In this document: in pieces, positions 1 to 12,156 of the stretch
Layout: every line of letters begins with the position of its first letter
Numbering within the stretch: position 1 is the first letter of the stretch
Assembly: GCF_000189275.1 (NCBI RefSeq)
Contig: NZ_AEVT01000006.1
Coordinates: 1-64,000 of the forward strand
Source: Vibrio sinaloensis DSM 21326
GTDB taxonomy: Bacteria; Pseudomonadota; Gammaproteobacteria; Enterobacterales; Vibrionaceae
Direction of reading: 5' to 3'
DNA: 64,000 nucleotides
Notes under the pieces: model-generated
Told to the model about the DNA's origin: nothing
Seen by the model: the letters and a program-made list of their open reading frames with translations, nothing else
The model's database searches: none
Translations under genes and position numbers: made by a program

Positions 1-42
1 AAAAATAAAATGATAGAAGTGTTTATAAGAGCTTTGTTTAAT

Positions 43-88
43 ATGAAATTGCAATGATTTGCAAAATGCAATTTTCATATTGCATATT
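43..88 (+). promoter_or_regulatory. LuxO-type activator sites upstream of Qrr RNA
   Basis: TTGCAAAATGCAA at 59-71 has the TTGCA-N3-TGCAA form known for LuxO sites upstream of Vibrio qrr genes. It sits inside a larger imperfect inverted repeat, with ATGAAATTGCA at 43-53 opposite TGCAATTTTCAT at 67-78. A further TTGCAT half-site lies near 80-85. The distance to the sigma-54 promoter (about 85 bp) suits an enhancer-binding activator. The site is read directly; assignment to LuxO rests on the motif and the Qrr gene downstream. Confidence 0.75.
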
Positions 89-145
89 GGTAATCTGATT
101 TGAGTAAAAAATGCGGTTCAGCCTTCATAAATGATGGTTTTAAAG

Positions 146-162
146 TTGGCACGCATACTGCA
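146..162 (+). promoter_or_regulatory. Sigma-54 (-24/-12) promoter of Qrr RNA
   Basis: TTGGCACGCATACTGCA contains the invariant GG and GC dinucleotides ten bases apart, as in the RpoN consensus TTGGCACG-N4-TTGCA. A start about 12 bases after the -12 GC falls at about 172, where the Qrr homology begins. Sigma-54 promoters need an enhancer-binding ATPase, here presumably LuxO bound to the site upstream. Confidence 0.85.
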
Positions 163-171
163 TTAGTAAGA

Positions 172-281
172 GTGACCCTTCTTAAGCCGAGGGTCACCTA
201 GCCAACTGACGTTGTTAGTGAATGAATTTTGTTCACACAATATATAAGCCAATCGCCCTTTTTGCGATTGGCTATTTTTTT
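172..281 (+). ncRNA. qrr: Qrr family quorum-regulatory small RNA
   Basis: About 110 nt. It starts with a hairpin (GTGACCCT at 172-179 pairing with AGGGTCAC at 190-197), followed by the near-invariant Qrr core that includes CTAGCCAACTGACGTTG and TTAGTGAA at about 197-224, and ends in a GC-rich terminator at 248-281. In Vibrio, LuxO~P and sigma-54 make Qrr RNAs at low cell density. With Hfq they repress the master regulator LuxR/HapR and activate AphA. This copy is followed by gltS rather than luxO, so it is one of the dispersed paralogs; which number cannot be told here. Confidence 0.93.
248..281 (+). terminator. Intrinsic terminator of Qrr RNA
   Basis: GCCAATCGC (248-256) pairs with GCGATTGGC (264-272), followed by a T-rich tail to 281. 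This stem is itself conserved in Qrr RNAs and would supply the Hfq-binding U tail. Confidence 0.93.
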
Positions 282-426
282 GCCTAAAAATTGGTAAAAC
301 TTAACTCTCTTCTTATGTTCGAGACATCTCAACTGCGAGACGTTTACAGCGAAACCTATCATCAATATCAGTCAACACTCGACAAATCGCCCCATTTTTA
401 TTAATAATGTGCGCTTTCTTTTCGTC

Positions 427-1921: not shown

Positions 1922-2659
1922 TTAGCGAAGAGCCAGCTTCGTACCATCAAATTTCAAATTAGCTAACAAGATTTTAGCGTTGTTCTTGCCCATGTCGTTG
2001 AACTGCACACCGTATCTCGCGTAGTGCATTGAACGTTGTAGGTTGCAAATTGTACCGAATAAAGGTTCAAACTGAATCTGCTTCCCATTATGTATTTGCA
2101 CAACGAGGGCGACTTCTTCGCCAACTTGAAACGGTCTACTCAACGGTGGGGCAATAAAACGACAACCGCTTTTCGACAAGTCACGAATCTCACAGTCTAA
2201 CTTACGAGTTTCAGTGGTCGCCTTAGCGTTGAGATTGACGTCAAATCTTGGCTCTTTACGTAACTGAGACACTTGCATGTCTTTGGGGATTGATAGCATT
2301 ACTATAGGCAGCGGCTCTTTGACGATGTGCTGCAGCTGCGTCCTAAAGTGGATAATCGCTCCTTCACCACGTGGTGAAATGGCTCTTACCGTTGCCCAAA
2401 ACCCTTCTTGAAAATAGAAGGCCAAATCGTCATCAGAGATCTTCGGTAACTCAGCTAATATGATGCTATCGGAGTGAGTACCTATAAACGCAGTTTTACA
2501 ACGGAAAGTACGTCCGACAGGGGTGGTAATGCTCATGGTGAACTCACCACCGTGTTCAACCATCGCGAGAGCGTCAATACTGTTTAATGTAACGACATTC
2601 CTCTGCTTATTGTATGGACTGGAACTTTGTTCTTTCATCGCTGCTGCCTGAGTACTCAT
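1922..2659 (-). CDS. PilZ-domain c-di-GMP receptor, VCA0042/PlzD type
   Basis: 245 residues, cytoplasmic, no signal or membrane segment. An N-terminal YcgR-N-like beta-barrel (about 1-130) is followed by a PilZ domain. The c-di-GMP contacts are visible: the RKEPR segment (RxxxR switch) near residue 135 and the downstream DLSKSGCRF (D/NxSxxG). The order and length match the V. cholerae protein VCA0042, whose structure with c-di-GMP is known. Proteins of this class link c-di-GMP to motility and biofilm. Single gene, divergent from the GNAT/kinase pair. Its exact target is not deducible. Confidence 0.88.
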   Translation of the reverse strand: MSTQAAAMKEQSSSPYNKQRNVVTLNSIDALAMVEHGGEFTMSITTPVGRTFRCKTAFIGTHSDSIILAELPKISDDDLAFYFQEGFWATVRAISPRGEGAIIHFRTQLQHIVKEPLPIVMLSIPKDMQVSQLRKEPRFDVNLNAKATTETRKLDCEIRDLSKSGCRFIAPPLSRPFQVGEEVALVVQIHNGKQIQFEPLFGTICNLQRSMHYARYGVQFNDMGKNNAKILLANLKFDGTKLALR

Positions 2660-2816
2660 CTAGCCTCCGTTGCCCGCGCATGATAAATTCACGCACGTTA
2701 TTATTCTTTTTCCGTCTAAATGCTCAGACTGGTATAAATTCTAAGTATGCGAAAGAATTTGTTCAAATACCAATAGTTAGATTTATTTGAGCTATGTATC
2801 AATTTAGGAGTTAATT

Positions 2817-3095
2817 ATGGCCAATACGGTACTTTTTGAGCCGGAGTTGCAGCAATTCCGCGTCCATTTAGAGCAGGAGCACTACGCTGTGGTTAAGTTC
2901 ACCGTTGAAGATAATACCTATTCGATTACCTCAACCAGAGTGCCAGACGAACTGCAAGGCAAAGGCTATGGCAAAGTGATGATGGAAGCGGTGTTACCAG
3001 AATTGGAAAAGATGCAGGTCAAAGTTGTTCCAATCTGCTCTTACGTGGTTCACTATCTCAATCGTCACCCTGAATGGGCACACCTAAAAGCGTAA
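2817..3095 (+). CDS. YjdJ-like small GNAT-fold acetyltransferase
   Basis: 92 residues, typical for the truncated GNAT family COG2388. It shows the acyl-CoA pyrophosphate loop LQGKGYGKVM and the family signature PICSYVVHYLNRHPEW near the C-terminus; the cysteine there is characteristic of YjdJ-like proteins. The substrate is unknown in this family. A TAGGAG ribosome site precedes the ATG. Its stop codon overlaps the start of the next gene (TAATG), indicating translational coupling with the kinase-like protein. Confidence 0.85.
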   Translation: MANTVLFEPELQQFRVHLEQEHYAVVKFTVEDNTYSITSTRVPDELQGKGYGKVMMEAVLPELEKMQVKVVPICSYVVHYLNRHPEWAHLKA

Positions 3096-4069
3096 TGATG
3101 CAAGAGTCTAATTACCTACCGTTAGTTCAAGAGCTGGGTTTCACTACCCTCCATTCCAAGCAGGTGTTACAGACCCTTTGGGGAGGGTATGGTGAACTGG
3201 TGAGGCTTTATGTTGATGACAGCAGTGTTGTTGTTAAGCATGTAAGACTACCAAAACCTGAGCACCACCCGCGGGGTTGGAATACCGATCTTGCTCATCA
3301 AAGAAAGCTCAAATCTTATCAGGTAGAGTTAGCCTTCTATCAAGACTATGCTGAGCAACATTTGCAATCATCACCCGTACCACAGCCACTCAAGGTAAAG
3401 CTGCAAAATGATGAGATGCTACTTGTAATGCAAGATTTGCAGTTCCTAGGTTACCCCGCCGTTGTTAAAGAGGCATCCTTGGAACAGCTAAGTGCCTGCT
3501 TAGAGTGGCTTGCTTACTTTCATGCGCAACATATAGGCACGGGAGGGGAACGACTTTGGCCGACTGGCACATACTGGCACTTGGCAACGAGACCCGATGA
3601 GTTGGCGGCTCTGAACGACCAGCGTTTAAGTGCGGCGGCCAGCATAATTGATGAGGTACTGACTCAGGCTCCGTATCAGACACTGGTACACGGGGACGCC
3701 AAACTTGCAAACTTCTGTTTTTCTGTTGATGGTCAGCGCGCGGCTGCGGTTGACTTCCAATATGTTGGCAAAGGATGTGCGATGAAAGATGTCGCTCTGT
3801 TTATGAGCAGCGCGGTTCTACCTAAGCAATGTGCCAAGATGGAAGCTTGGCTTCTTGACTGCTACTTTGGGCACCTTCGTAGAGCGTTAAATCAGCATCA
3901 ACCCGATATTGACCGAGAGGATGTTGAGCGTAAGTGGAGACCTTTATTTGCGATTGCTTGGGCAGACTTCCAACGTTCTGTAAAAGGGTGGAGCCCAGAG
4001 CACTGGAAAATCAATCCTTATACTGAGCGACTTACCGAAAGAGCGCTCAATGAATTGGGTGTGAGATAA
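3095..4069 (+). CDS. APH/choline-kinase-fold phosphotransferase
   Basis: 324 residues from the ATG that overlaps the preceding stop codon (TAATG); an in-frame ATG 21 bases earlier lies inside the upstream gene and is less likely. The fold is an aminoglycoside-phosphotransferase/EcKinase type: a catalytic-loop HGDAKLANF (Brenner motif HGDxxxxN) and the metal-binding DFQYVGKG segment that replaces the DFG motif. Family members phosphorylate small molecules such as choline, ecdysteroids or aminoglycosides. No substrate can be assigned. Pairing with a small GNAT protein suggests joint handling of one metabolite. Confidence 0.75.
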   Translation: MMQESNYLPLVQELGFTTLHSKQVLQTLWGGYGELVRLYVDDSSVVVKHVRLPKPEHHPRGWNTDLAHQRKLKSYQVELAFYQDYAEQHLQSSPVPQPLKVKLQNDEMLLVMQDLQFLGYPAVVKEASLEQLSACLEWLAYFHAQHIGTGGERLWPTGTYWHLATRPDELAALNDQRLSAAASIIDEVLTQAPYQTLVHGDAKLANFCFSVDGQRAAAVDFQYVGKGCAMKDVALFMSSAVLPKQCAKMEAWLLDCYFGHLRRALNQHQPDIDREDVERKWRPLFAIAWADFQRSVKGWSPEHWKINPYTERLTERALNELGVR

Positions 4070-4072
4070 GCT

Positions 4073-4106
4073 TAACCCCAGCCAAGCTTTTAGGCGTGGT
4101 TGGGGC
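4073..4106. terminator. Probable bidirectional terminator
   Basis: CCCCAGCCA (4076-4084) pairs with TGGTTGGGG (4097-4105), one G-T wobble, between two convergent genes. The T tracts on both sides are weak. Confidence 0.5.
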
Positions 4107-4111
4107 TGTTT

Positions 4112-4603
4112 CTAGATGATGACTCTGGCCATTGAATAGGTGTTTATGTACTTCCCTTCTCGGAATGAAGCGGCTTTAAACTCACCTTCGATCTCGAAGC
4201 CAAATTTTTTGTAGCACGCGATGGCTTTTTCATTATCGACGTTCACTTCTAAATGTATTCGCTTCACCTGAAGCCAGTTGTCAGCGAGATCGATAACGGT
4301 TTGAATCAGTTTGCTACCGATGCCTAGACCGTGGTAGTCGTCGTGAACACCGATCCCAAACGTAGCGCAGTGGCTGATCCTAGGTCGTTGAGCCTGTTCA
4401 AAACCTATGTTACCCACGACCTTACCATCTACTTCTGCAACGAAGCTATAGACACCGGTCGGTATGTTTTCCAGTCGTTGGGTCCACATGGTCACTGATG
4501 GCATTGGCAGCTGGAGGGTCTCGCGTTGAGCACTAGGTTGCGAGTAAATTTCACTTAAAGCGGCAGCATCGCTGACTAGAGTAGGGCGGATGACAATTTC
4601 CAT
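4112..4603 (-). CDS. GNAT N-acetyltransferase, AaaT/YhhY-like
   Basis: 163 residues from the inner ATG (an ATG two codons upstream is possible). The sequence starts MEIVIRP, carries the QP...LQLPMPS and W..RL segments, the CoA loop GLGIGSKLIQ and the C-terminal NEKAIACYKKFGFEIEGE block. This arrangement closely follows E. coli YhhY (AaaT), which acetylates L-phenylalanine and L-methionine. The amino acid substrate is inferred from that likeness only. It converges on the kinase gene with a shared terminator between them. Confidence 0.8.
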   Translation of the reverse strand: MEIVIRPTLVSDAAALSEIYSQPSAQRETLQLPMPSVTMWTQRLENIPTGVYSFVAEVDGKVVGNIGFEQAQRPRISHCATFGIGVHDDYHGLGIGSKLIQTVIDLADNWLQVKRIHLEVNVDNEKAIACYKKFGFEIEGEFKAASFREGKYINTYSMARVII

Positions 4604-4769
4604 AAACATCTCTCTGACTGGTTAAACATTGCTCCACATTAGCGTGAAAGTAAGAATTGTTAAAGCATTGTTTTAAAATTAATTTACAGACGTTATTTTG
4701 GATTTTGGCGGGTTGATGGGAACAGAGGTTGTTATGGCTGGTTATTTACTTATTTATTGATTGGCTATG

Positions 4770-4793
4770 AAAAAGGGAGCCGTGACTCCCTTT
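4770..4793 (-). terminator. Terminator of trhO
   Basis: AAAGGGAG/CTCCCTTT stem. Read on the minus strand it ends in a run of T, downstream of the trhO stop. The rest of 4604-4837 shows no gene. Confidence 0.8.
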
Positions 4794-4837
4794 GAAAACC
4801 AGCAGGTCTGAATACTGAGTAGCAAAGTTAATTGAGG

Positions 4838-5818
4838 TTATTTTGCTTTTCGCTGCTGCTCTTTGCGGGCTAGTTTCTCTTGACGACGCTTGGCGATAAC
4901 GTTATCGGCTTCACCACCTACGTGGGTTTCACCACGTGCATTTGCCAGTTGTACTTGTTTCTCACGTTCTCGGAAACGTGCTTTTTGTTCGTCGGTGTGC
5001 TTATCTATGCATTTCGGACAACTTACGCCTTTCTCGTAGGCCTCAGATTCCATGTCTTGCTGAGTAATCGGTAAGCGACAAGCATTACACATTTCATAGT
5101 CACTTTTCTGTAGCTGGTGGTTAACTGCGACGCGTCCATCAAACACGTAACAGTCGCCGTTCCACATACTTTCTTCTTCAGGCACTTCTTCCAAGTACTT
5201 CAAGATCCCACCTTCTAGATGGTAAACCTCTTCAAATCCTTGTTCTTTCATGTAAGCCGTCGATTTTTCACAACGAATTCCACCCGTACAGAACATGGCG
5301 ACTTTCTTGTGTTTCGTCGGGTCCATGTTTTCAGCGACGTAGTCAGGAAATTCACGAAATGTGTCAGTCTTAGGGTTGACGGCATTTTCAAATGTACCGA
5401 TCTCAATCTCGTAATCGTTGCGCGTATCAACAACGAAAACCTCTGGGTCGGAGATGAGTTCGTTCCAATCGGCTGGTTTTACATAAGTGCCTACCACGTG
5501 GCGTGGATCAATGCCTTCAACACCCAATGTCACAATCTCTTTTTTGAGTTTCACTTTCGTGCGATTGAATGGTTGGCTTGCTTCAAAGGATTCTTTATAA
5601 ACAATATCCGCTAGACGCTCATCTTGCTTAAACCATGCGAGTAGCGCGTCGACCCCTTCACGAGTCGCGGCAACGGTACCATTGATCCCTTCATTAGCGA
5701 GGAGCAGAGTTCCACGAATCTCATGTTGCTCCATCAAGGTTTTAAGCGGCGTTTGTAGGTCTACATAATCTTCAAGTCGCACAAATTTATACAGTGCGCA
5801 TACTACATAATTAGTCAT
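4838..5818 (-). CDS. trhO: tRNA U34 hydroxylase TrhO (YceA family)
   Basis: 326 residues, normal for the family. An N-terminal acylphosphatase-like domain (ANEGINGTV) leads into a rhodanese domain whose active loop is [10 protein letters not shown], with the catalytic cysteine in place. A C-terminal Cys-rich segment (CNAC...CPKC) and a basic tail follow. TrhO makes 5-hydroxyuridine at position 34 of tRNAs using oxygen, the precursor of mo5U/cmo5U wobble bases. Cytoplasmic, single gene with its own terminator. Confidence 0.93.
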
Positions 5819-6102
5819 TGTCTTTCCTGTTAGCGAGCTGAATCGTAAATCCAGAGCTTTAATTTAAATCGCGGCGAGTATAACCAAGTGTAGGGCGGAC
5901 AAATACCGACAGTTAATAGGGTTAACGATACGAGTGAGTTTTGTGAAATCTGTGTAACCCTACTTTTCACAACAACAGCAAGGCATTACGTGTTACAGTC
6001 GGAATTATTATGCGCATTGCTTCTTACATAGCCGCTTTGTCATCATCTTGGCTTCGTATGCAGCGCATAGGATTCGCCCTCGTCAGGACAAGGAAAGGAA
6101 CC

Positions 6103-7284
6103 ATGACCCGCTCTGATTCATCTTGGAAAACCCCACAAAACTTTTTATTGATCATCTCAATCGTTGTACCTATTGCGTTCTCAAGTTGGATGGCGCTGTT
6201 GAACAACTTTGTTATCGAACGGGCTAACTTTGATGGTTCAGATATCGGCTTGTTACAGAGCGTACGTGAAATTCCAGGGTTTCTGGCTTTTACCGCCGTT
6301 TTTGTTCTGCTCTTTATTCGTGAGCAACGCTTTATGCTGTTGTCATTAGCAGCACTGACCTTGGGCACTGCGATTACCGGTTTTTTCCCTAGTCTATTCG
6401 GATTGTTGATGACCACATTGCTGATGTCGACAGGCTTTCACTATTTCGAAACGCTAAAACAGTCGCTGTCTTTACAGTGGCTGACCAAAGATGAAGCGCC
6501 AGAAATGTTAGGTAAGTTTATTTCTGTTGGAGCATTGGCTTCGTTATGTACCTATGGAGCTCTTTGGGTTTGTCTCGAAGTGTTCAAAATGGACTTTGAG
6601 TGGGTTTACCTGACTTTTGGTGGTATTGGTTTTGCGCTGGTTGTTTGGATGACGTTTGCCTTTCCTCAGTTCAAATCAGATGTACCGCAGAACAAAAAAT
6701 TGGTGCTGAGAAAGCGCTACTGGCTCTACTACGCTCTGACCTTCATGAGTGGAGCACGTCGACAAATTTTTACCGTCTTTGCTGGTTTTTTGATGGTTGA
6801 AAAATTTGGTTATTCAGCCGCTGATATTACCGTACTGTTTTTGATTAACTATCTGTTTAACTTCTTGTTTGCGAAAAAGATTGGTCGCTTTATCGGTAAA
6901 GTTGGTGAACGTAAGGCGCTGATGTTTGAATACGTGGGTTTGATTGGGGTGTTTGTCGGGTACGCAATGGTGCAAACTGCGGAGTGGGCAGCGGCGCTGT
7001 ATGTGATTGATCACCTGTTCTTCGCACTGGCTTTAGCGATTAAAACTTACTTCCAGAAAATTGCAGACCCTGCTGACATGGCTTCAACAGCAGGCGTCTC
7101 ATTTACGATTAACCATATTGCAGCGGTGTTTATCCCGGTAAGCTTTGGGTTCATTTGGTTAATCTCGCCTGCGGCTGTGTTTTACATCGGTGCAGCGATG
7201 GCTTGCGTCTCACTGCTGCTCTCTCTCAATATTCCTCGCCAGCCAGACGAGGGTAACGAAGTTCGTATTTTAAAGTGGAGCTAA
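6103..7284 (+). CDS. MFS transporter
   Basis: 393 residues from the ATG preceded by AGGAAAGGAACC, a strong ribosome site. An upstream in-frame ATG at 6010 adds 31 basic, non-conserved-looking residues and is rejected. Eleven to twelve hydrophobic helices and a central cytoplasmic basic loop (KKLVLRKR) fit the major facilitator superfamily. No substrate motif is recognised. It overlaps in function with the next gene, an MviM-like oxidoreductase starting 4 bases after its stop, so the two form an operon; the transporter may import or export the sugar-like substrate of that enzyme. Confidence 0.85.
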   Translation: MTRSDSSWKTPQNFLLIISIVVPIAFSSWMALLNNFVIERANFDGSDIGLLQSVREIPGFLAFTAVFVLLFIREQRFMLLSLAALTLGTAITGFFPSLFGLLMTTLLMSTGFHYFETLKQSLSLQWLTKDEAPEMLGKFISVGALASLCTYGALWVCLEVFKMDFEWVYLTFGGIGFALVVWMTFAFPQFKSDVPQNKKLVLRKRYWLYYALTFMSGARRQIFTVFAGFLMVEKFGYSAADITVLFLINYLFNFLFAKKIGRFIGKVGERKALMFEYVGLIGVFVGYAMVQTAEWAAALYVIDHLFFALALAIKTYFQKIADPADMASTAGVSFTINHIAAVFIPVSFGFIWLISPAAVFYIGAAMACVSLLLSLNIPRQPDEGNEVRILKWS

Positions 7285-7288
7285 CGAC

Positions 7289-8218
7289 ATGCTGACAATT
7301 GGCATTATCGGTTTGGGGGATATTGCTCAGAAAGCATATTTGCCTGTTATCACTCAACTCGTCGACGTTGAACCTGTGTTTTGTACGCGAAATCGTGAAA
7401 CGCTTGAGGCACTTGCACAGCAATATCGGGTAGATAAATACTGTGTAGATTATCGCCAATTGCTTGAGTTGGGTGTTGACGCCGTTATGATTCATGCGGC
7501 GACCTTTGCTCATACCGAAATCGCGAGCTTTTTCTTACAGCATGGCGTTGCAACCTTTGTGGATAAACCTTTAGCCGACAGCGCGGCGGATGTTGAAAGG
7601 CTTTACGAGTTGTCCGTTAAATATCATTGCCCCTTGTACGTGGGTTTTAATCGACGTCACATTCCACTGTATAACGACCATATTCCTGAGCTAGCGAATG
7701 GCGACCTTGGTCAGTTGACCTCATTGCGTTGGGAGAAGCATCGTTTTGATCATGCAGGAGAAATACGCACTTTCGTTTTTGATGATTTCATTCACCCGCT
7801 TGATAGCATCAACTTAAACCGAAAATCGGATCTGTCTGATGTGTATGTAACGCATCAAATGAGTGGAAGGTTACTTTCGAGATTGGATGTTCAGTGGCAA
7901 GCTGGTGGGGCGTTGTTGCACGCCTCAATGAACCGACAGTTTGGTATTACCCGCGAGCGGGTATCGGCAAGCTATCAAAACGTGGCGCTTGAGTTTGATT
8001 CATTTGTTGGCGGTAAAAAGTGGCAACAAGCGGGCGAGCAATCATTGATGCTCAAGGACTGGACACCTATGTTAGCAAGCAAAGGTTTTGAGAATATGAT
8101 TGCTGACTGGTTAAGGGTTGTTGAATGTGGTCAAGTGGCCTCATCGGTGATCGATAGAAACATAGCGACTCACCAGTTAGCTGAAGCGCTTACCAGCAAG
8201 TTAGAGGCGTTGTTGTAA
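7289..8218 (+). CDS. Gfo/Idh/MocA-family oxidoreductase, MviM/YceM-like
   Basis: 309 residues. The N-terminal Rossmann fold opens with IGIIGLGDIAQKAYLPV (GxGxxA-type NAD(P) loop); VDKPLADS carries the EKP/DKP motif typical of this superfamily, and VGFNRRH follows. The closest pattern I know is E. coli YceM (MviM), of unproven substrate. Family enzymes oxidise or reduce cyclic polyols and sugars. Second gene of a pair with the MFS transporter; the ribosome site GGAG lies within the end of that gene. Confidence 0.88.
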   Translation: MLTIGIIGLGDIAQKAYLPVITQLVDVEPVFCTRNRETLEALAQQYRVDKYCVDYRQLLELGVDAVMIHAATFAHTEIASFFLQHGVATFVDKPLADSAADVERLYELSVKYHCPLYVGFNRRHIPLYNDHIPELANGDLGQLTSLRWEKHRFDHAGEIRTFVFDDFIHPLDSINLNRKSDLSDVYVTHQMSGRLLSRLDVQWQAGGALLHASMNRQFGITRERVSASYQNVALEFDSFVGGKKWQQAGEQSLMLKDWTPMLASKGFENMIADWLRVVECGQVASSVIDRNIATHQLAEALTSKLEALL

Positions 8219-8260: not shown

Positions 8261-9169
8261 TTACACTAACCTGTTTTGGATATATTCAATGAAGGTCTTG
8301 ATTTGACTAGGAATATATTTAGATTGTGCATACTGCGCAATAATTTTTCCTTGATAGTTGCCACCTACATGCCAATCGCGCAGCACTTCGATAACCTGGC
8401 CTGAATCGATGTACGATTGAATGGCGAATTCAGGGAATACGGAGAGACCGACCCCTCTCAATACCGCTTCGCGCCGAATTTCACTGTGATTGACGATAAA
8501 TGACCCATTGACGTTTATCGATACCTTCTTGTTATTATTAGTAAATTCCCATACACGGTCACGTGGGTTCTCACCTAAACATAAGCAATTGTGCCCAGAA
8601 ATATCCTGTGGGTGAATCGGCATTCCATATTGCTCAATGTACTCTGGACTCGCACACAAAACGAGCCGACAGTGTCCGAGTGGCTTTGCAATTAACCCTT
8701 CCATCGGTTTGTCGGTGATCATGATAATGATGTCAACCTCATCGCCAATTGGATCAATGTAATGATCCGCCACTTTTAGTTGGAGAGAAACGTTAGGATA
8801 ATCATCGATAAAGTCGAGGATGAACGGCATTAATACCTGCCTAGACAAGGCTTTAGGTGCCGCTACTCGTAATGAGCCTGAGACATCTGTCTTATCCACT
8901 TGGGCAGCAGAAACGGCCATTTTCGCTGAGTTCATCATGTCACTGCATAGGCTGTAGACCTCTTGCCCTGTCGAACTCAACCGCATTTGTCGCGTGGTTC
9001 GCTCCAACAGTTTTTCTTCTAACGCACTTTCAAGACGCGTTATTGAACGGCTGACTGAGGAGGGAGAAACGCCCAATTTCTTCGCGGTTTGGGAGAAACT
9101 CCCAGACTCAACCACGTTAACGAAGATTGCCATCTCAGAAAGAAGAGGAATAAGCCTATTTGTGTCCAT
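8261..9169 (-). CDS. LysR-family transcriptional regulator of the ligase cluster
   Basis: 302 residues. Winged helix-turn-helix at about 10-70 (FVNVVESGSFSQTAKKLGVSPSSVSRSITRLE), then a periplasmic-binding-like effector domain. The sequence style (TTRQMRLSSTGQEVY) is that of the CrgA/AaeR subgroup. It is divergent from the ArgG-like gene with about 105 bp between the start codons, the classic layout for a LysR regulator controlling its neighbour. The intergenic AATTAAGTCAATTGAC stretch is AT-rich and could hold the T-N11-A site, but I cannot fix it. The ligand is probably the product or substrate of the adjacent pathway. Confidence 0.9.
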   Translation of the reverse strand: MDTNRLIPLLSEMAIFVNVVESGSFSQTAKKLGVSPSSVSRSITRLESALEEKLLERTTRQMRLSSTGQEVYSLCSDMMNSAKMAVSAAQVDKTDVSGSLRVAAPKALSRQVLMPFILDFIDDYPNVSLQLKVADHYIDPIGDEVDIIIMITDKPMEGLIAKPLGHCRLVLCASPEYIEQYGMPIHPQDISGHNCLCLGENPRDRVWEFTNNNKKVSINVNGSFIVNHSEIRREAVLRGVGLSVFPEFAIQSYIDSGQVIEVLRDWHVGGNYQGKIIAQYAQSKYIPSQIKTFIEYIQNRLV

Positions 9170-9274
9170 GGCGCAATTATCCTTTGCATTATGGCTGTAT
9201 TGTTTCGTTTAAGTTACTTATGGATACTAATTAAGTCAATTGACAACAACAAAAAAGAATAAAGGACGTGAAGC

Positions 9275-10492
9275 ATGAAGAAGATCAGAAGTATCGAGGA
9301 TGTGATGGCTGTTGCCAGCGTTTCGAAGCACATTTTGACCTTATTCAGTGGAGGACTCGATAGCTCTTATGTATTGGAGTTACTAAAGAACAGCCAAGCT
9401 AAGGTGACTGCATTGGCGGTTGACTTGGGTGATGGTATAGAAGAATCAAGCTTAAGGCTGATCACTGACCATTATGGGTTTGATTTGAAAATCATCGATG
9501 CTAGGCAGGAATTTGTAGAACACAGTTTAGTCTCTGCTATTCAAGCGCAAGCTCTGTATCTTGGCGATTACCCCGTTAGTTCTTCGCTCTCACGGCCTAT
9601 CATAGTTAAAAAAGCACTAGAACTTGCAGAGATACTGGAGTGTGACGCCATTATTCATACGGCTAATCAATCACAAAACAGTTTAAGACGCCTTAACGGT
9701 GCCATTGAAAAAGCCGGATTTACAGGATATTACGGCTCTCCTTACGAATACTCTGCATTACCCAGAGAAGACAAGGCCAAAGCATTGTTTCATTCTGGGT
9801 TAGTCGGCTTTAAAAGCCGCAATGTGAGTGGCGATTCCAATTTATGGTGCCGCGAATTTGAATCTGGTGTTTTGGACAATCCAGAACAGTTCACGGTGTC
9901 CGAATCACTGTTTACTTGGTCTCGTTGGCAGACGGAGAAACAGTTAGAAAACGATCAAATCAAGATAGGTTTTCTTCAAGGTTATCCAGTTACTTTGAAC
10001 GACAATCCTATCAATTTACTCGAGTTAATTGCCTTCATTAACAACCACGTTGGCGCGTATGAGATCGGTCGATTTGTAGGGTTTGACCATCTCGATCAGG
10101 ACGAAAAGGTATTAGAAGTGCGAGAAGCACCTGCCGCTGCTCTCCTGATGAAGGCTTATAAGCTGCTGGAAACAGCGGTTTTACCTACCGATGTACTCAA
10201 GGCTAAAGCGATACATAACGACATGTGGACTCAAGAGGCTGTTGAAGGCCGCTTTGGCAGCATGTTGCAAAAAGCTAGCTATGCGTTCATTGCTCACACT
10301 GCCGAATTCGTTTCTGGCAGTGTCCTATTCAACTTAAGCCGAGGTAATGCTCTGGCAACAAGCATAGTTGCTGAGAATCCAAGGTACTTGTGTGACCGAG
10401 ATGCTTGGGAAGTGGAGGTTGCACATCAGCGTAGCCTACGTTCACTTGCTCTCGATAACACATCAGAGCATGCCCAACAGGTCGTATCATAG
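9275..10492 (+). CDS. Divergent argininosuccinate-synthase-like ATP-dependent ligase
   Basis: 405 residues, the length of bacterial ArgG. The PP-loop SGGLDSS (25-31) and SLSRPII (near 105-111) place it in the ArgG fold, which adenylates a substrate and couples an amine. Substrate-binding positions differ from true ArgG by my manual alignment. The stretch equivalent to TGKGNDQVRF reads NQSQNSLRRL (131-140), the YETP motif reads REAP, and HISxEGG reads CREFESG. It is therefore unlikely to be the arginine-pathway enzyme and probably joins different substrates. First gene of a three-gene operon with a dioxygenase and an exporter. AAGGA ribosome site. Confidence 0.8.
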   Translation: MKKIRSIEDVMAVASVSKHILTLFSGGLDSSYVLELLKNSQAKVTALAVDLGDGIEESSLRLITDHYGFDLKIIDARQEFVEHSLVSAIQAQALYLGDYPVSSSLSRPIIVKKALELAEILECDAIIHTANQSQNSLRRLNGAIEKAGFTGYYGSPYEYSALPREDKAKALFHSGLVGFKSRNVSGDSNLWCREFESGVLDNPEQFTVSESLFTWSRWQTEKQLENDQIKIGFLQGYPVTLNDNPINLLELIAFINNHVGAYEIGRFVGFDHLDQDEKVLEVREAPAAALLMKAYKLLETAVLPTDVLKAKAIHNDMWTQEAVEGRFGSMLQKASYAFIAHTAEFVSGSVLFNLSRGNALATSIVAENPRYLCDRDAWEVEVAHQRSLRSLALDNTSEHAQQVVS

Positions 10493-10505
10493 GGAGGAAC
10501 ATTCC

Positions 10506-11249
10506 ATGCAGAATGTTATGCACACGACAAGCAAAAATAAATCGGTGATCACTGAGATCCTCAAGCAGAACCAATACGTTTTTGTTGGAGGTAAACAGAT
10601 GACTTCATTGCTGCAAACCAATGTCGATGAAGTGGTCAGATTTAAACATTGCTGGAGTCAACTGGAGCGGGATCAGTATATGGCGGATGGTGGCACATAT
10701 CGCTATCGTCGCTACGGACAATTTATGAAGCTTCCCGGTAGCCACGAGATCACCATGTTGCCTCACGAACCCTATGTTCAGCCTTCTTACATCAATAACC
10801 TAAATGGTGACATTGAGCGTCATTTTGAACCTCTAACAGACCGGTTTGTCACCTCACCAATTCTGGAACGTCTGCTTTGTTTGATGAGCGATATTTATGA
10901 CGGTGCAGAAGGGCAAGCAACCAAATGGAATATACGTTTACATCCCTATCGCATTATTGCGGATGACTTTGAAGCGGGGCAACCGACACCTGAAGGGTTA
11001 CATCGGGATGGAGTCACTTATATTGCTTCAATGATGATCAACAGAAACAACGTTATGGGCGGAATGACGACCATAACGGATGCAAACCAAAACGAACTTG
11101 AGCGCTTAATGCTTGATAAGACCTTTGACATCGTCATGGCCGACGATTCGGAGACAATGCACGAAGTGTCGGCCATTCGGCCAGAAAGTTCGGAAAAATG
11201 CGCGTACAGGGATGTACTCGTGATCGCTTTTACAAAAATGGAGGAATGA
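10506..11249 (+). CDS. 2-oxoglutarate/Fe(II) dioxygenase (PF10014-like amino acid hydroxylase)
   Basis: 247 residues from the ATG behind AGGGAGGAAC, a strong ribosome site; a longer reading frame upstream overlaps the ligase gene and is rejected. The iron ligands appear as H166-x-D168 (LHRDG) with the distal His219 (ETMHEVSAI), and Arg235 (YRDVL) could bind 2-oxoglutarate. The layout matches the 2OG-Fe dioxygenase family whose studied Bacillus members hydroxylate free L-amino acids such as isoleucine. Here it probably hydroxylates an amino acid used or made by the adjacent ligase. Its stop lies one base before the exporter start. Confidence 0.82.
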   Translation: MQNVMHTTSKNKSVITEILKQNQYVFVGGKQMTSLLQTNVDEVVRFKHCWSQLERDQYMADGGTYRYRRYGQFMKLPGSHEITMLPHEPYVQPSYINNLNGDIERHFEPLTDRFVTSPILERLLCLMSDIYDGAEGQATKWNIRLHPYRIIADDFEAGQPTPEGLHRDGVTYIASMMINRNNVMGGMTTITDANQNELERLMLDKTFDIVMADDSETMHEVSAIRPESSEKCAYRDVLVIAFTKMEE

Positions 11250-11250
11250 C

Positions 11251-12156
11251 ATGACGACGGCAACGAGTTCGTTAAAAAAAGGGAGTTTTAAGTTTCCCGT
11301 AACAGAGTCACTACTACTATTAGTGGCCGTGTTTTGGGGAACGAGTTACGGGCTCACCAAAAGTGCCTTGGTTTACACCAGTGTTTTACTCTTCATTTCC
11401 ATACGTTTCTCAATCACTTTTTTATGTATGCTACCTGTAGTGATTCGAGACTTTCGCCGAGGGCTCAATAAAGACTGGAAGATTGCGATTCCGACAGGCT
11501 TTATTCTATCGGCGATTTTTTTCTGCGAAGTGTTTGGGGTTTCGCAAACCTCAGCATCCAATGCAGCATTTCTCATCAGTTTGACCGTGATCCTGACGGC
11601 ATTCGCTGAGTTAATCATCAACAAAAAACGTGTCAGTAATATGTTGTTGGGGCTGACGGTGTGCAGTGTGGTTGGTGTGCTGCTACTTACCAGTGAGCAA
11701 GGCATTGAGTTTTCGCTCAATACTGGGGACTACTTTATCCTTACCGCAGCGCTATTACGTGCGCTTATGGTGACACTCACTAAGCGTTTTACGGAAGGAA
11801 AGGAGATAACAACATCGACTTTGACATCGCTTCAATCGTTAGTGGTGGCATCTTGTGCGATCGTTGGAGCGTTGGTTTACTTGCCTGCTTCTGAGTTTGT
11901 ACTACCGACATCGACAGAGTTTTGGATTACCGTGGCTTACTTGGTTTTGTTTTGCACTTTGTTTGCTTTCTATGTCCAAAACTATGCCGTCCGCAGAACA
12001 TCACCGACCCGAGTGTCGTTGCTGATGGGAAGTGAGCCTCTGTTTGGTGCTATTTTTGCCATGGTCTGGTTGCAAGAATCACTGAGCTTAATTCAGTTGG
12101 CTGGTGGGGCGCTGATATTGTTTAGTGTCGTTGTTACCTCAACCAGAGAAACTTAA
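11251..12156 (+). CDS. EamA/DMT-family exporter
   Basis: 301 residues with ten hydrophobic helices in two EamA repeats; the second repeat ends in the usual ...GSEPLFGAIFAMVWLQESLS...GGALILFSV pattern. Members such as RhtA and YdeD export amino acids and their derivatives. It is the last gene of the operon, starting one base after the dioxygenase stop, and so most likely exports the product of the ligase and hydroxylase. A GGAGGA ribosome site lies in the end of the preceding gene. An inverted repeat follows. Confidence 0.87.
   Translation: MTTATSSLKKGSFKFPVTESLLLLVAVFWGTSYGLTKSALVYTSVLLFISIRFSITFLCMLPVVIRDFRRGLNKDWKIAIPTGFILSAIFFCEVFGVSQTSASNAAFLISLTVILTAFAELIINKKRVSNMLLGLTVCSVVGVLLLTSEQGIEFSLNTGDYFILTAALLRALMVTLTKRFTEGKEITTSTLTSLQSLVVASCAIVGALVYLPASEFVLPTSTEFWITVAYLVLFCTLFAFYVQNYAVRRTSPTRVSLLMGSEPLFGAIFAMVWLQESLSLIQLAGGALILFSVVVTSTRET

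What the first reader, a model, noticed from the sequence alone, without database searches (positions are those of the whole stretch)
9275..12156. Uncharacterised ligase, dioxygenase and exporter cluster
Three tightly spaced genes form a likely pathway: an ArgG-fold ligase with altered substrate residues, a 2OG-Fe amino acid hydroxylase-like enzyme, and an EamA exporter, with a divergent LysR. Seen: gene order, intact PP-loop and iron motif. Known: ArgG makes argininosuccinate; PF10014-like dioxygenases hydroxylate free amino acids; EamA proteins export amino acids. Inferred: the cell makes and secretes a modified amino acid conjugate. I know of no described pathway with this set.
Basis: partly seen in the sequence, partly recalled or inferred. 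Interest (0 to 1): 0.75.

Follow-up and report, generated by a model that had tools for sequence, protein, structure and literature searches.

The report
Operon for a secreted nitrile amino acid
Three linked genes and a divergent regulator in this probable Vibrio look like an undescribed small pathway that turns the amide of an amino acid into a nitrile, oxidises it and pumps it out of the cell; the same gene set recurs in very different bacteria.

Summary
At 9275-12156 three tightly packed genes (ligase, PF10014 Fe/2OG dioxygenase, EamA exporter) lie next to a divergent LysR gene. The ligase is not ArgG. It belongs to NCBIfam NF038212 (argG_rel, 609.9 bits, cut-off 425); its nearest solved relative is 'nitrile synthetase ArtA' (9leh, 42% identity, Z 48.7), and the genome has a separate ArgG. 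The three residues reported to interact with the amide in ArtA are identical here (window Q134, S185, D187), while ArgG's aspartate-site motif is lost. In a tree, ArtA nests inside the bacterial family beside rhizobial loci with the same exporter-ligase-dioxygenase set. All 23 genomes of the genus (227 searched) with the ligase over the cut-off have the four-gene set. Of 86 loci, 55 have dioxygenase and EamA within 4 kb, none of them with an NRPS adenylation motif in the stretch held; 17 of the other 31 have one. Best explanation: an exported, free, oxidised nitrile amino acid, probably derived from Gln or Asn. Activity, substrate, order of steps and role were not tested. I found no description of this gene set in the papers searched.

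The parts
8261..9169 (-). LysR-family regulator, divergent from the operon
   Evidence: Pfam HTH_1 and LysR_substrate; divergent partner in 23 of 23 genus genomes with the ligase over the cut-off
9170..9274 (.). Divergent intergenic region; block AAGTTACTTATGGATACTAATTAAGTCAAT at 9211-9240 is largely conserved among Vibrio; probable operator and promoter (inferred)
   Evidence: MAFFT of window plus 12 Vibrio loci; no sigma-70 consensus hit here
9275..10492 (+). ArgG-fold PP-loop enzyme of the argG_rel / ArtA family; proposed amide-to-nitrile synthetase
   Evidence: NF038212 609.9 bits over cut-off 425; best PDB match 9leh, nitrile synthetase, E 7.3e-93; model vs ArtA Z 48.7, 2.0 A; tree
9347..9364 (+). 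PP-loop SGGLDS (residues 25-30)
   Evidence: S25, G26, L28, D29 invariant in 27 members, G27 and S30 nearly so
9665..9682 (+). N131-Q-S-Q134-N-S136, replacing the ArgG TGKGND motif; Q134 aligns with ArtA Q146
   Evidence: Q in 85 of 86 family rows, Gly in the 4 ArgGs aligned; ArtA residue named in PMC13060819
9827..9835 (+). S185-G-D187, aligned with ArtA S197 and D199 (also S and D in ArgG)
   Evidence: S and D in 86 of 86 rows
10506..11249 (+). PF10014 Fe(II)/2-oxoglutarate dioxygenase; proposed amino acid hydroxylase or cyclase
   Evidence: PF10014 5.9e-61; model (pLDDT 92.2) vs 3pl0 Z 30.3, IDO 25.8, HrmJ 25.1-25.6
11001..11009 (+). Iron ligands H166-x-D168
   Evidence: H and D in 59 of 60 rows
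11160..11162 (+). Iron ligand H219
   Evidence: H in 59 of 60 rows
11251..12156 (+). EamA/DMT transporter, proposed exporter
   Evidence: EamA 116.1 bits, two stretches; TIGR00950 79.3 bits, below its cut-off 230.2

Best explanation
This is a self-contained operon that makes and secretes a small non-protein amino acid carrying a nitrile. The ligase (9275-10492) activates the side-chain amide of a free amino acid, probably Gln, Asn or an oxidised form of one, with ATP and expels AMP to leave a nitrile, as is reported for ArtA. The PF10014 dioxygenase (10506-11249) oxidises the same amino acid at a side-chain carbon, before or after nitrile formation. The EamA protein exports the product, and the divergent LysR controls the operon. 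Shown by sequence: gene set, family memberships, conserved catalytic and amide-site residues, kinship with ArtA, wide conservation of the set. Inferred: the reaction in this organism, the substrate, the order of steps, export, and a role as an antimetabolite.
For: (1) Nearest solved relative is 'nitrile synthetase' 9leh (E 7.3e-93) against 3e-33 for the best ArgG; model vs ArtA Z 48.7, 2.0 A over 380 residues, ArgGs Z 37.9-41.4. (2) ArtA Q146, S197 and D199 align with identical residues here; Q146 is specific to the family (85 of 86 rows; Gly in the 4 ArgGs aligned), S and D are shared with ArgG (residues named in PMC13060819, from docking and mutants). (3) In a tree of 92 rows rooted on 4 ArgGs (branch support 99), ArtA nests inside the bacterial family, in a 4-row clade (support 100) with Microvirga, Rhizobium and A. 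vitis loci that carry EamA, ligase and dioxygenase. (4) A separate ArgG exists in the genome. (5) The four genes are together in 23 of 23 genus genomes with the ligase over the cut-off. (6) Of 86 loci, 55 have dioxygenase plus EamA within 4 kb and 0 of 55 show an NRPS adenylation motif in the stretch held, against 17 of the other 31: this suggests a free product in one context and a peptide building block in the other. (7) PF10014 enzymes act on free amino acids, and the B. thuringiensis IDO operon pairs one with an RhtA-family exporter (PMC3684760, passages).
Against: No activity was tested. Window and ArtA are only 42% identical and ArtA sits in a distant subclade, so the reaction or substrate may differ. 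Two of the three ArtA residues are also present in ArgG. I did not see the ArtA paper itself (only its citation and a summary in PMC13060819); that the auranthine nitrile comes from glutamine is recalled. 26 of 86 loci lack both partners, so the ligase is not bound to this pathway. The dioxygenase tracks the ligase more loosely (rho 0.47 against 0.80 for ligase and EamA), so its substrate may vary. The plain glutamine nitrile hardly slows E. coli (PMC13320846), which speaks against a simple antimetabolite role for it.
Confidence: 0.6

Rival explanations
1. The ligase still joins two molecules, as ArgG does: it activates an amide or ureido group and an amine attacks, giving an amidine or conjugate that is oxidised and exported.
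For: ArgG fold and PP-loop; several positions that contact citrulline in ArgG (recalled assignment) are kept in the window, among them Y99, R139, S185 and E284.
Against: The ArgG TGKGND motif is N-x-S-Q-N-S/T in the family: the T is lost in 84 of 86 rows and the D in 86 of 86; the closest characterised relative is reported to make a nitrile.
Confidence: 0.15
2. The ligase activates the side-chain amide but the substrate's own amine or hydroxyl attacks, giving a cyclic amidine or imidate instead of a nitrile.
For: The AMP-imidate intermediate proposed for PesC (PMC13060819) could in principle be trapped within the molecule, and an oxidising enzyme is co-encoded.
Against: ArtA, which nests inside this family, is reported to make a nitrile; no direct test here.
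Confidence: 0.12
3. A second true argininosuccinate synthase that serves arginine supply or export.
For: Belongs to the ArgG superfamily.
Against: Separated from ArgG in the tree, below the cut-offs of the five argininosuccinate synthase equivalog models it matches, another ArgG elsewhere in the genome, no argH-like gene among the four.
Confidence: 0.03
4. In this subclade ligase and dioxygenase make some other modification of an amino acid, not a nitrile, and EamA exports that.
For: The Vibrio subclade is far from ArtA in the tree, and the dioxygenase distances follow the ligase's only loosely.
Against: Amide-site residues are unchanged across nearly the whole family.
Confidence: 0.1

Closest known systems
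ArtA/NitB nitrile synthetase (PDB 9leh, 9lei; cited in PMC13060819)
   Same: Same family and fold, 42% identity, identical reported amide-site residues, same replacement of the ArgG aspartate motif
   Different: Here the enzyme sits in a LysR-flanked operon with a dioxygenase and an exporter; the ArtA paper could not be read and ArtA's organism was not checked
Argininosuccinate synthase (ArgG)
   Same: Fold, PP-loop, several substrate-site positions
   Different: 21% identity to the genome's own ArgG, aspartate-site motif replaced, separate clade, below equivalog cut-offs
IDO operon of Bacillus thuringiensis and Hil operon of Pantoea (PMC3684760)
   Same: Small operon: PF10014 dioxygenase on a free amino acid, a second enzyme, and in IDO an RhtA-family exporter; LysR regulator in Hil
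   Different: Second enzyme there is a short-chain dehydrogenase/reductase, not an ArgG-like ligase; dioxygenase only distantly alike in sequence (IDO 4.3e-7; HilB model 38 bits against 350)
HrmJ / BelL (hormaomycin, belactosin)
   Same: Same PF10014 fold and nearer in sequence than IDO (HrmJ 9dqp 3.6e-31 and 9dq0 2.5e-15, BelL 2.8e-15); they act after another enzyme has put an electron-withdrawing group on the amino acid (PMC10764440)
   Different: That group is a nitro group made from lysine by a diiron enzyme; the product goes into peptides. By fold score HrmJ and IDO are tied
QueC/ToyM, PesC, CalN
   Same: ATP-dependent nitrile formation (PMC13060819)
   Different: Other protein families and other substrates (a 7-deazaguanine base, a peptide C-terminus, and for CalN a polyketide, the last by inference)

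Membership tests
NF038212 argG_rel / ArtA-type family | Curated model score over cut-off | tested here: met
   609.9 bits against 425
NF038212 argG_rel / ArtA-type family | Same clade as ArtA, apart from ArgG | tested here: met
   Tree of 92 rows rooted on 4 ArgGs (branch support 99); ArtA and window both lie among 87 rows (support 98). Quick search, SH-aLRT only, long-branch warnings
NF038212 argG_rel / ArtA-type family | ArtA amide-interacting residues Q146, S197, D199 | tested here: met
   Window Q134, S185, D187. The printed chain counts 29 higher than the paper's numbers; the entry's own numbers (model 1..383 on 12..393) agree with that shift
NF038212 argG_rel / ArtA-type family | ATP-dependent amide-to-nitrile activity | not testable with these tools
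   Needs an enzyme assay
Argininosuccinate synthase (ArgG) | TGKGND aspartate-site motif (role recalled) | tested here: not met
   N131-Q-S-Q-N-S136 in window
Argininosuccinate synthase (ArgG) | Equivalog score over cut-off | tested here: not met
   TIGR00032 177.3 bits against 268.2; the four other ArgG models listed are also below theirs
PF10014 Fe/2OG dioxygenase | Family score and HxD...H, R motif | tested here: met
   206 bits against 23.1; H166, D168, H219, R235 each in 59 of 60 rows
PF10014 Fe/2OG dioxygenase | Oxidises a free amino acid | not testable with these tools
   Needs an enzyme assay
EamA exporter | EamA domains | tested here: met
   116.1 bits, two stretches
EamA exporter | Export of this product | not testable with these tools
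   Needs transport or culture work
IDO/Hil-type operon | PF10014 enzyme with a second enzyme and an exporter in one operon | tested here: met
   Gene order
IDO/Hil-type operon | Short-chain dehydrogenase HilC/AR partner | tested here: not met
   No such gene in the three-gene unit
IDO/Hil-type operon | Dioxygenase scores as HilB | tested here: not met
   NF042428 38 bits against 350

The most novel reading that the evidence does not exclude
Several characterised PF10014 enzymes hydroxylate free amino acids at C4 (PMC3684760, PMC9951290). If this one does so on glutamine, or on its nitrile, the combined product is 2-amino-4-cyano-4-hydroxybutanoate, the cyanohydrin of aspartate semialdehyde: a secreted, latent cyanide-releasing amino acid made without hydrogen cyanide synthase. 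An alternative of the same kind is a cyano-activated ring closure, by analogy with HrmJ and BelL. Both are chemical inference only.
Probability: 0.13. Interest if true: 0.85.

Novelty: new variant of a known kind. Interest (0 to 1): 0.6.

Why it matters
Nitriles are uncommon in natural products, and PMC13060819 counts only a small number of ATP-dependent nitrile-forming enzymes, with ArtA/NitB as the ArgG-like ones. A compact three-gene unit, often with its own regulator, found in Vibrio, other proteobacteria, actinomycetes, a cyanobacterium and a myxobacterium, would make nitrile amino acids a fairly common bacterial secretion instead of a curiosity. It gives a simple system for testing the substrate and the order of steps, and a source of enzymes for making nitriles under mild conditions.

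Tried and rejected
Papers: the 3pl0 structure paper and the auranthine NitB paper are not held; for the ArtA paper I saw only the citation and did not look it up by id. PDB codes 9DQP, 9DQ0, 8JMS, 9LEH and 8W8H as paper search terms: no paper. EamA against solved structures: no match up to E 0.1. Megablast of the Salmonella diarizonae ligase-dioxygenase stretch in E. coli genomes: no match.

Second true ArgG: rejected. MFS (6010-7284) and Gfo/Idh/MocA (7289-8218) as pathway members: not adopted. They run convergent with LysR; their ORF clusters occur in 10 and 6 of the 86 loci, each of them a Vibrio. Serine hydroxymethyltransferase near L007 and a similar ORF in L055 as pathway genes: not adopted; in L055 the genes behind it look by eye like an ordinary chromosomal neighbourhood. 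NRPS adenylation codes as evidence for the substrate: read by eye against recalled GrsA positions; the domain in L007 looks threonine-like, one in L059 serine-like and one glycine-like, none clearly Gln or Asn. Too weak to use. Consensus promoter scan: no hit in the intergenic region, fewer hits than in shuffles overall.

Limits of the counts: the genome-contig scan kept the best 80 of 148 relatives, so nearer relatives are over-represented. The 86 loci are these 80 plus 6 plasmid loci chosen by me from 49 records with a match. L006 and L027 are the same V. halioticoli sequence. L011 is an outgroup, left out of the 86-row residue counts (85 loci plus the window) but included in the 86-locus context counts. 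One search left out L006 and L011. 'Nearby' means within 4 kb and over a score limit: L008, counted as dioxygenase only, has an annotated EamA gene about 8 kb away. The adenylation count is a regular expression over stretches of unequal length. The tree is a quick one (SH-aLRT only) and the program warned of long branches, among them ArtA's group with L090.
Full report
What is there. The window holds, at 9275-12156, three genes on the + strand with gaps of 13 and 1 base, and a divergent LysR gene at 8261-9169. Pfam names them as an ArgG-superfamily enzyme, a PF10014 Fe/2OG dioxygenase, an EamA transporter and a LysR regulator. The organism is probably a Vibrio: the closest named relative found is Vibrio sinaloensis (ligase 90% identical). 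In the window's genus the ligase is present over the family cut-off in 23 of 227 genomes searched, the window's own included.

The ligase is not ArgG. It scores 609.9 bits with NCBIfam NF038212 'argininosuccinate synthase-related protein' (cut-off 425) and lies below the cut-off of each of the five argininosuccinate synthase models listed. The genome has another ArgG of 404 aa on contig C63, 21% identical to this protein; a third, weak PF00764 match on C77 is under the family cut-off. The best solved relative is 9leh, named nitrile synthetase, E 7.3e-93, against 3e-33 for the best ArgG. An AlphaFold2 model (27 sequences, mean pLDDT 90.9) fits ArtA with Z 48.7 and 2.0 A over 380 residues, and ArgGs with Z 37.9-41.4.

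Residues. PMC13060819 (a preprint; [quoted passage not shown] The chain printed counts 29 higher than these numbers; with that shift the three letters fit, and the entry's own residue numbers (model 1..383 on 12..393) agree. They align with window Q134, S185 and D187. Among 86 family rows (85 loci and the window, L011 left out) Q is kept in 85, S and D in all 86. S and D are also found in the four ArgGs aligned; Q is Gly there. The ArgG motif TGKGND is N-x-S-Q-N-S/T in the family: its T is lost in 84 of 86 rows and its D in 86 of 86 (these hold aspartate in ArgG; role recalled). R283 replaces an ArgG tyrosine, and R283, C192 and E194 are invariant in 86 of 86 rows.

Tree. With 92 rows rooted on four ArgGs (branch support 99), ArtA lies inside the bacterial family, beside Microvirga lupini L087 (support 96, 69% identity) and with Rhizobium L009 and Agrobacterium vitis L010 (support 100). 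Those three loci carry EamA, ligase and dioxygenase in that order; the dioxygenase match in L087 covers only part of the protein. So the characterised enzyme comes from a branch whose bacterial members have the same three kinds of gene. The organism of ArtA was not checked. The tree was a quick one and the program warned of long branches.

Context elsewhere. In the genus, 23 of 23 genomes with the ligase over the cut-off have LysR, ligase, dioxygenase and EamA in the same order (10 loci, the window, and 12 regions); in L112 the dioxygenase match is in two pieces. Of 86 loci (80, the best of 148 relatives, and 6 plasmid loci), 40 have dioxygenase, EamA and LysR within 4 kb, 15 dioxygenase and EamA, 5 dioxygenase only, 26 none. 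An adenylation-domain motif occurs in the stretch held for 0 of the 55 loci with dioxygenase and EamA and for 17 of the other 31. Pfam confirms NRPS genes in a Burkholderia cenocepacia plasmid (L007) and in Salmonella enterica diarizonae (L059), and an ATP-grasp protein in Streptomyces (L063). The pattern suggests a free exported amino acid in one context and a peptide building block in the other. Pairwise identities correlate: ligase with EamA rho 0.80 and with LysR 0.82, ligase with dioxygenase 0.47; the largest value in 200 permutations was 0.26 over all six pairs tested.

The dioxygenase. The iron ligands H166, D168 and H219 and R235 are each kept in 59 of 60 rows. The nearest solved proteins by sequence are 3pl0 (8.9e-36) and HrmJ 9dqp (3.6e-31); IDO is far behind (4.3e-7). 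By fold the model (pLDDT 92.2) fits 3pl0 with Z 30.3, 8w8h 28.9, IDO 25.8 and HrmJ 25.1-25.6, so IDO and HrmJ are tied. PF10014 enzymes hydroxylate free amino acids: Ile, Leu, Thr (PMC3684760, passages) and Lys by GlbB (PMC9951290, passages). HrmJ and BelL instead close a cyclopropane on 6-nitronorleucine, after a partner enzyme has made the nitro group, and HrmJ only hydroxylates a carboxylate analogue (PMC10764440, passages). By analogy the dioxygenase here may act after the nitrile is made; this is inference.

How it most likely works. ATP activates the side-chain amide of a free amino acid; loss of AMP gives the nitrile; the dioxygenase oxidises the side chain; EamA exports the product, as RhtA is presumed to do for the antimicrobial AMKP in the IDO operon (PMC3684760). 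Glutamine is the favoured substrate because ArtA/NitB is cited together with auranthine (PMC13060819), whose nitrile comes from glutamine (recalled). The glutamine nitrile, 2-amino-4-cyanobutanoate, is accepted by E. coli methionyl-tRNA synthetase at low efficiency, did not slow E. coli at 40 or 200 ug/mL and did so only marginally at 800, and is said to be made by Chromobacteria (PMC13320846; part 1 of 4 of the text and passages). That speaks against a simple toxic role for the unoxidised nitrile; if the product is toxic, the oxidation may matter. This last point is speculation.

What is new. The ligase family and its chemistry are known; the LysR/ligase/dioxygenase/EamA unit, its breadth and a free exported nitrile amino acid made this way were not found described in the papers searched (open-licence PubMed Central only). 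I rate it a new variant of a known kind.

What is not shown. No enzyme activity, substrate, product, transport or biological role was tested. Two of the three ArtA residues are shared with ArgG, the ArtA paper was not read, and the dioxygenase is the loosest member of the set.

Noticed in passing
L116 (unnamed genus genome), 2239-6159: A second ArgG-like gene that keeps TGKGND (217.1 bits to argG_rel, under its cut-off) lies with a weakly matching EamA gene, an ORF that looks by eye like ArgH and one that looks like a LuxI-type autoinducer synthase.
   Followed up: partly
L059, 33-11374: Salmonella enterica diarizonae: NRPS, ligase, PF10014 dioxygenase and a seryl-tRNA synthetase-like gene in a row; the last could be self-resistance or a biosynthetic enzyme.
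   Followed up: partly
L007, 7983-16480: Burkholderia cenocepacia plasmid: ligase, TauD-like enzyme, PF10014 dioxygenase, AMP-binding protein and a C-A-T NRPS in a row.
   Followed up: partly
L061, 6280-10070: Streptantibioticus ferralitis: the ligase is flanked by a gene that looks by eye like fused LeuD/LeuB homologues and by one that looks like a PhyH-type dioxygenase, perhaps a hint at an extended amino acid substrate.
   Followed up: no
L026, 9286-9978 and L112, 3299-4017: The dioxygenase translation has an internal stop in Photobacterium aquimaris and is matched in two pieces in another genus genome; decay or assembly error.
   Followed up: no
L005, 1426-2088 (genome contig C76): The genome has a second PF10014 protein (220 aa), next to an ORF that resembles by eye a cysteine desulfurase and near one that resembles thioredoxin reductase.
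   Followed up: no
window 6010-8218: An MFS transporter and a Gfo/Idh/MocA oxidoreductase lie upstream, convergent with LysR; similar genes recur at some Vibrio loci.
   Followed up: partly
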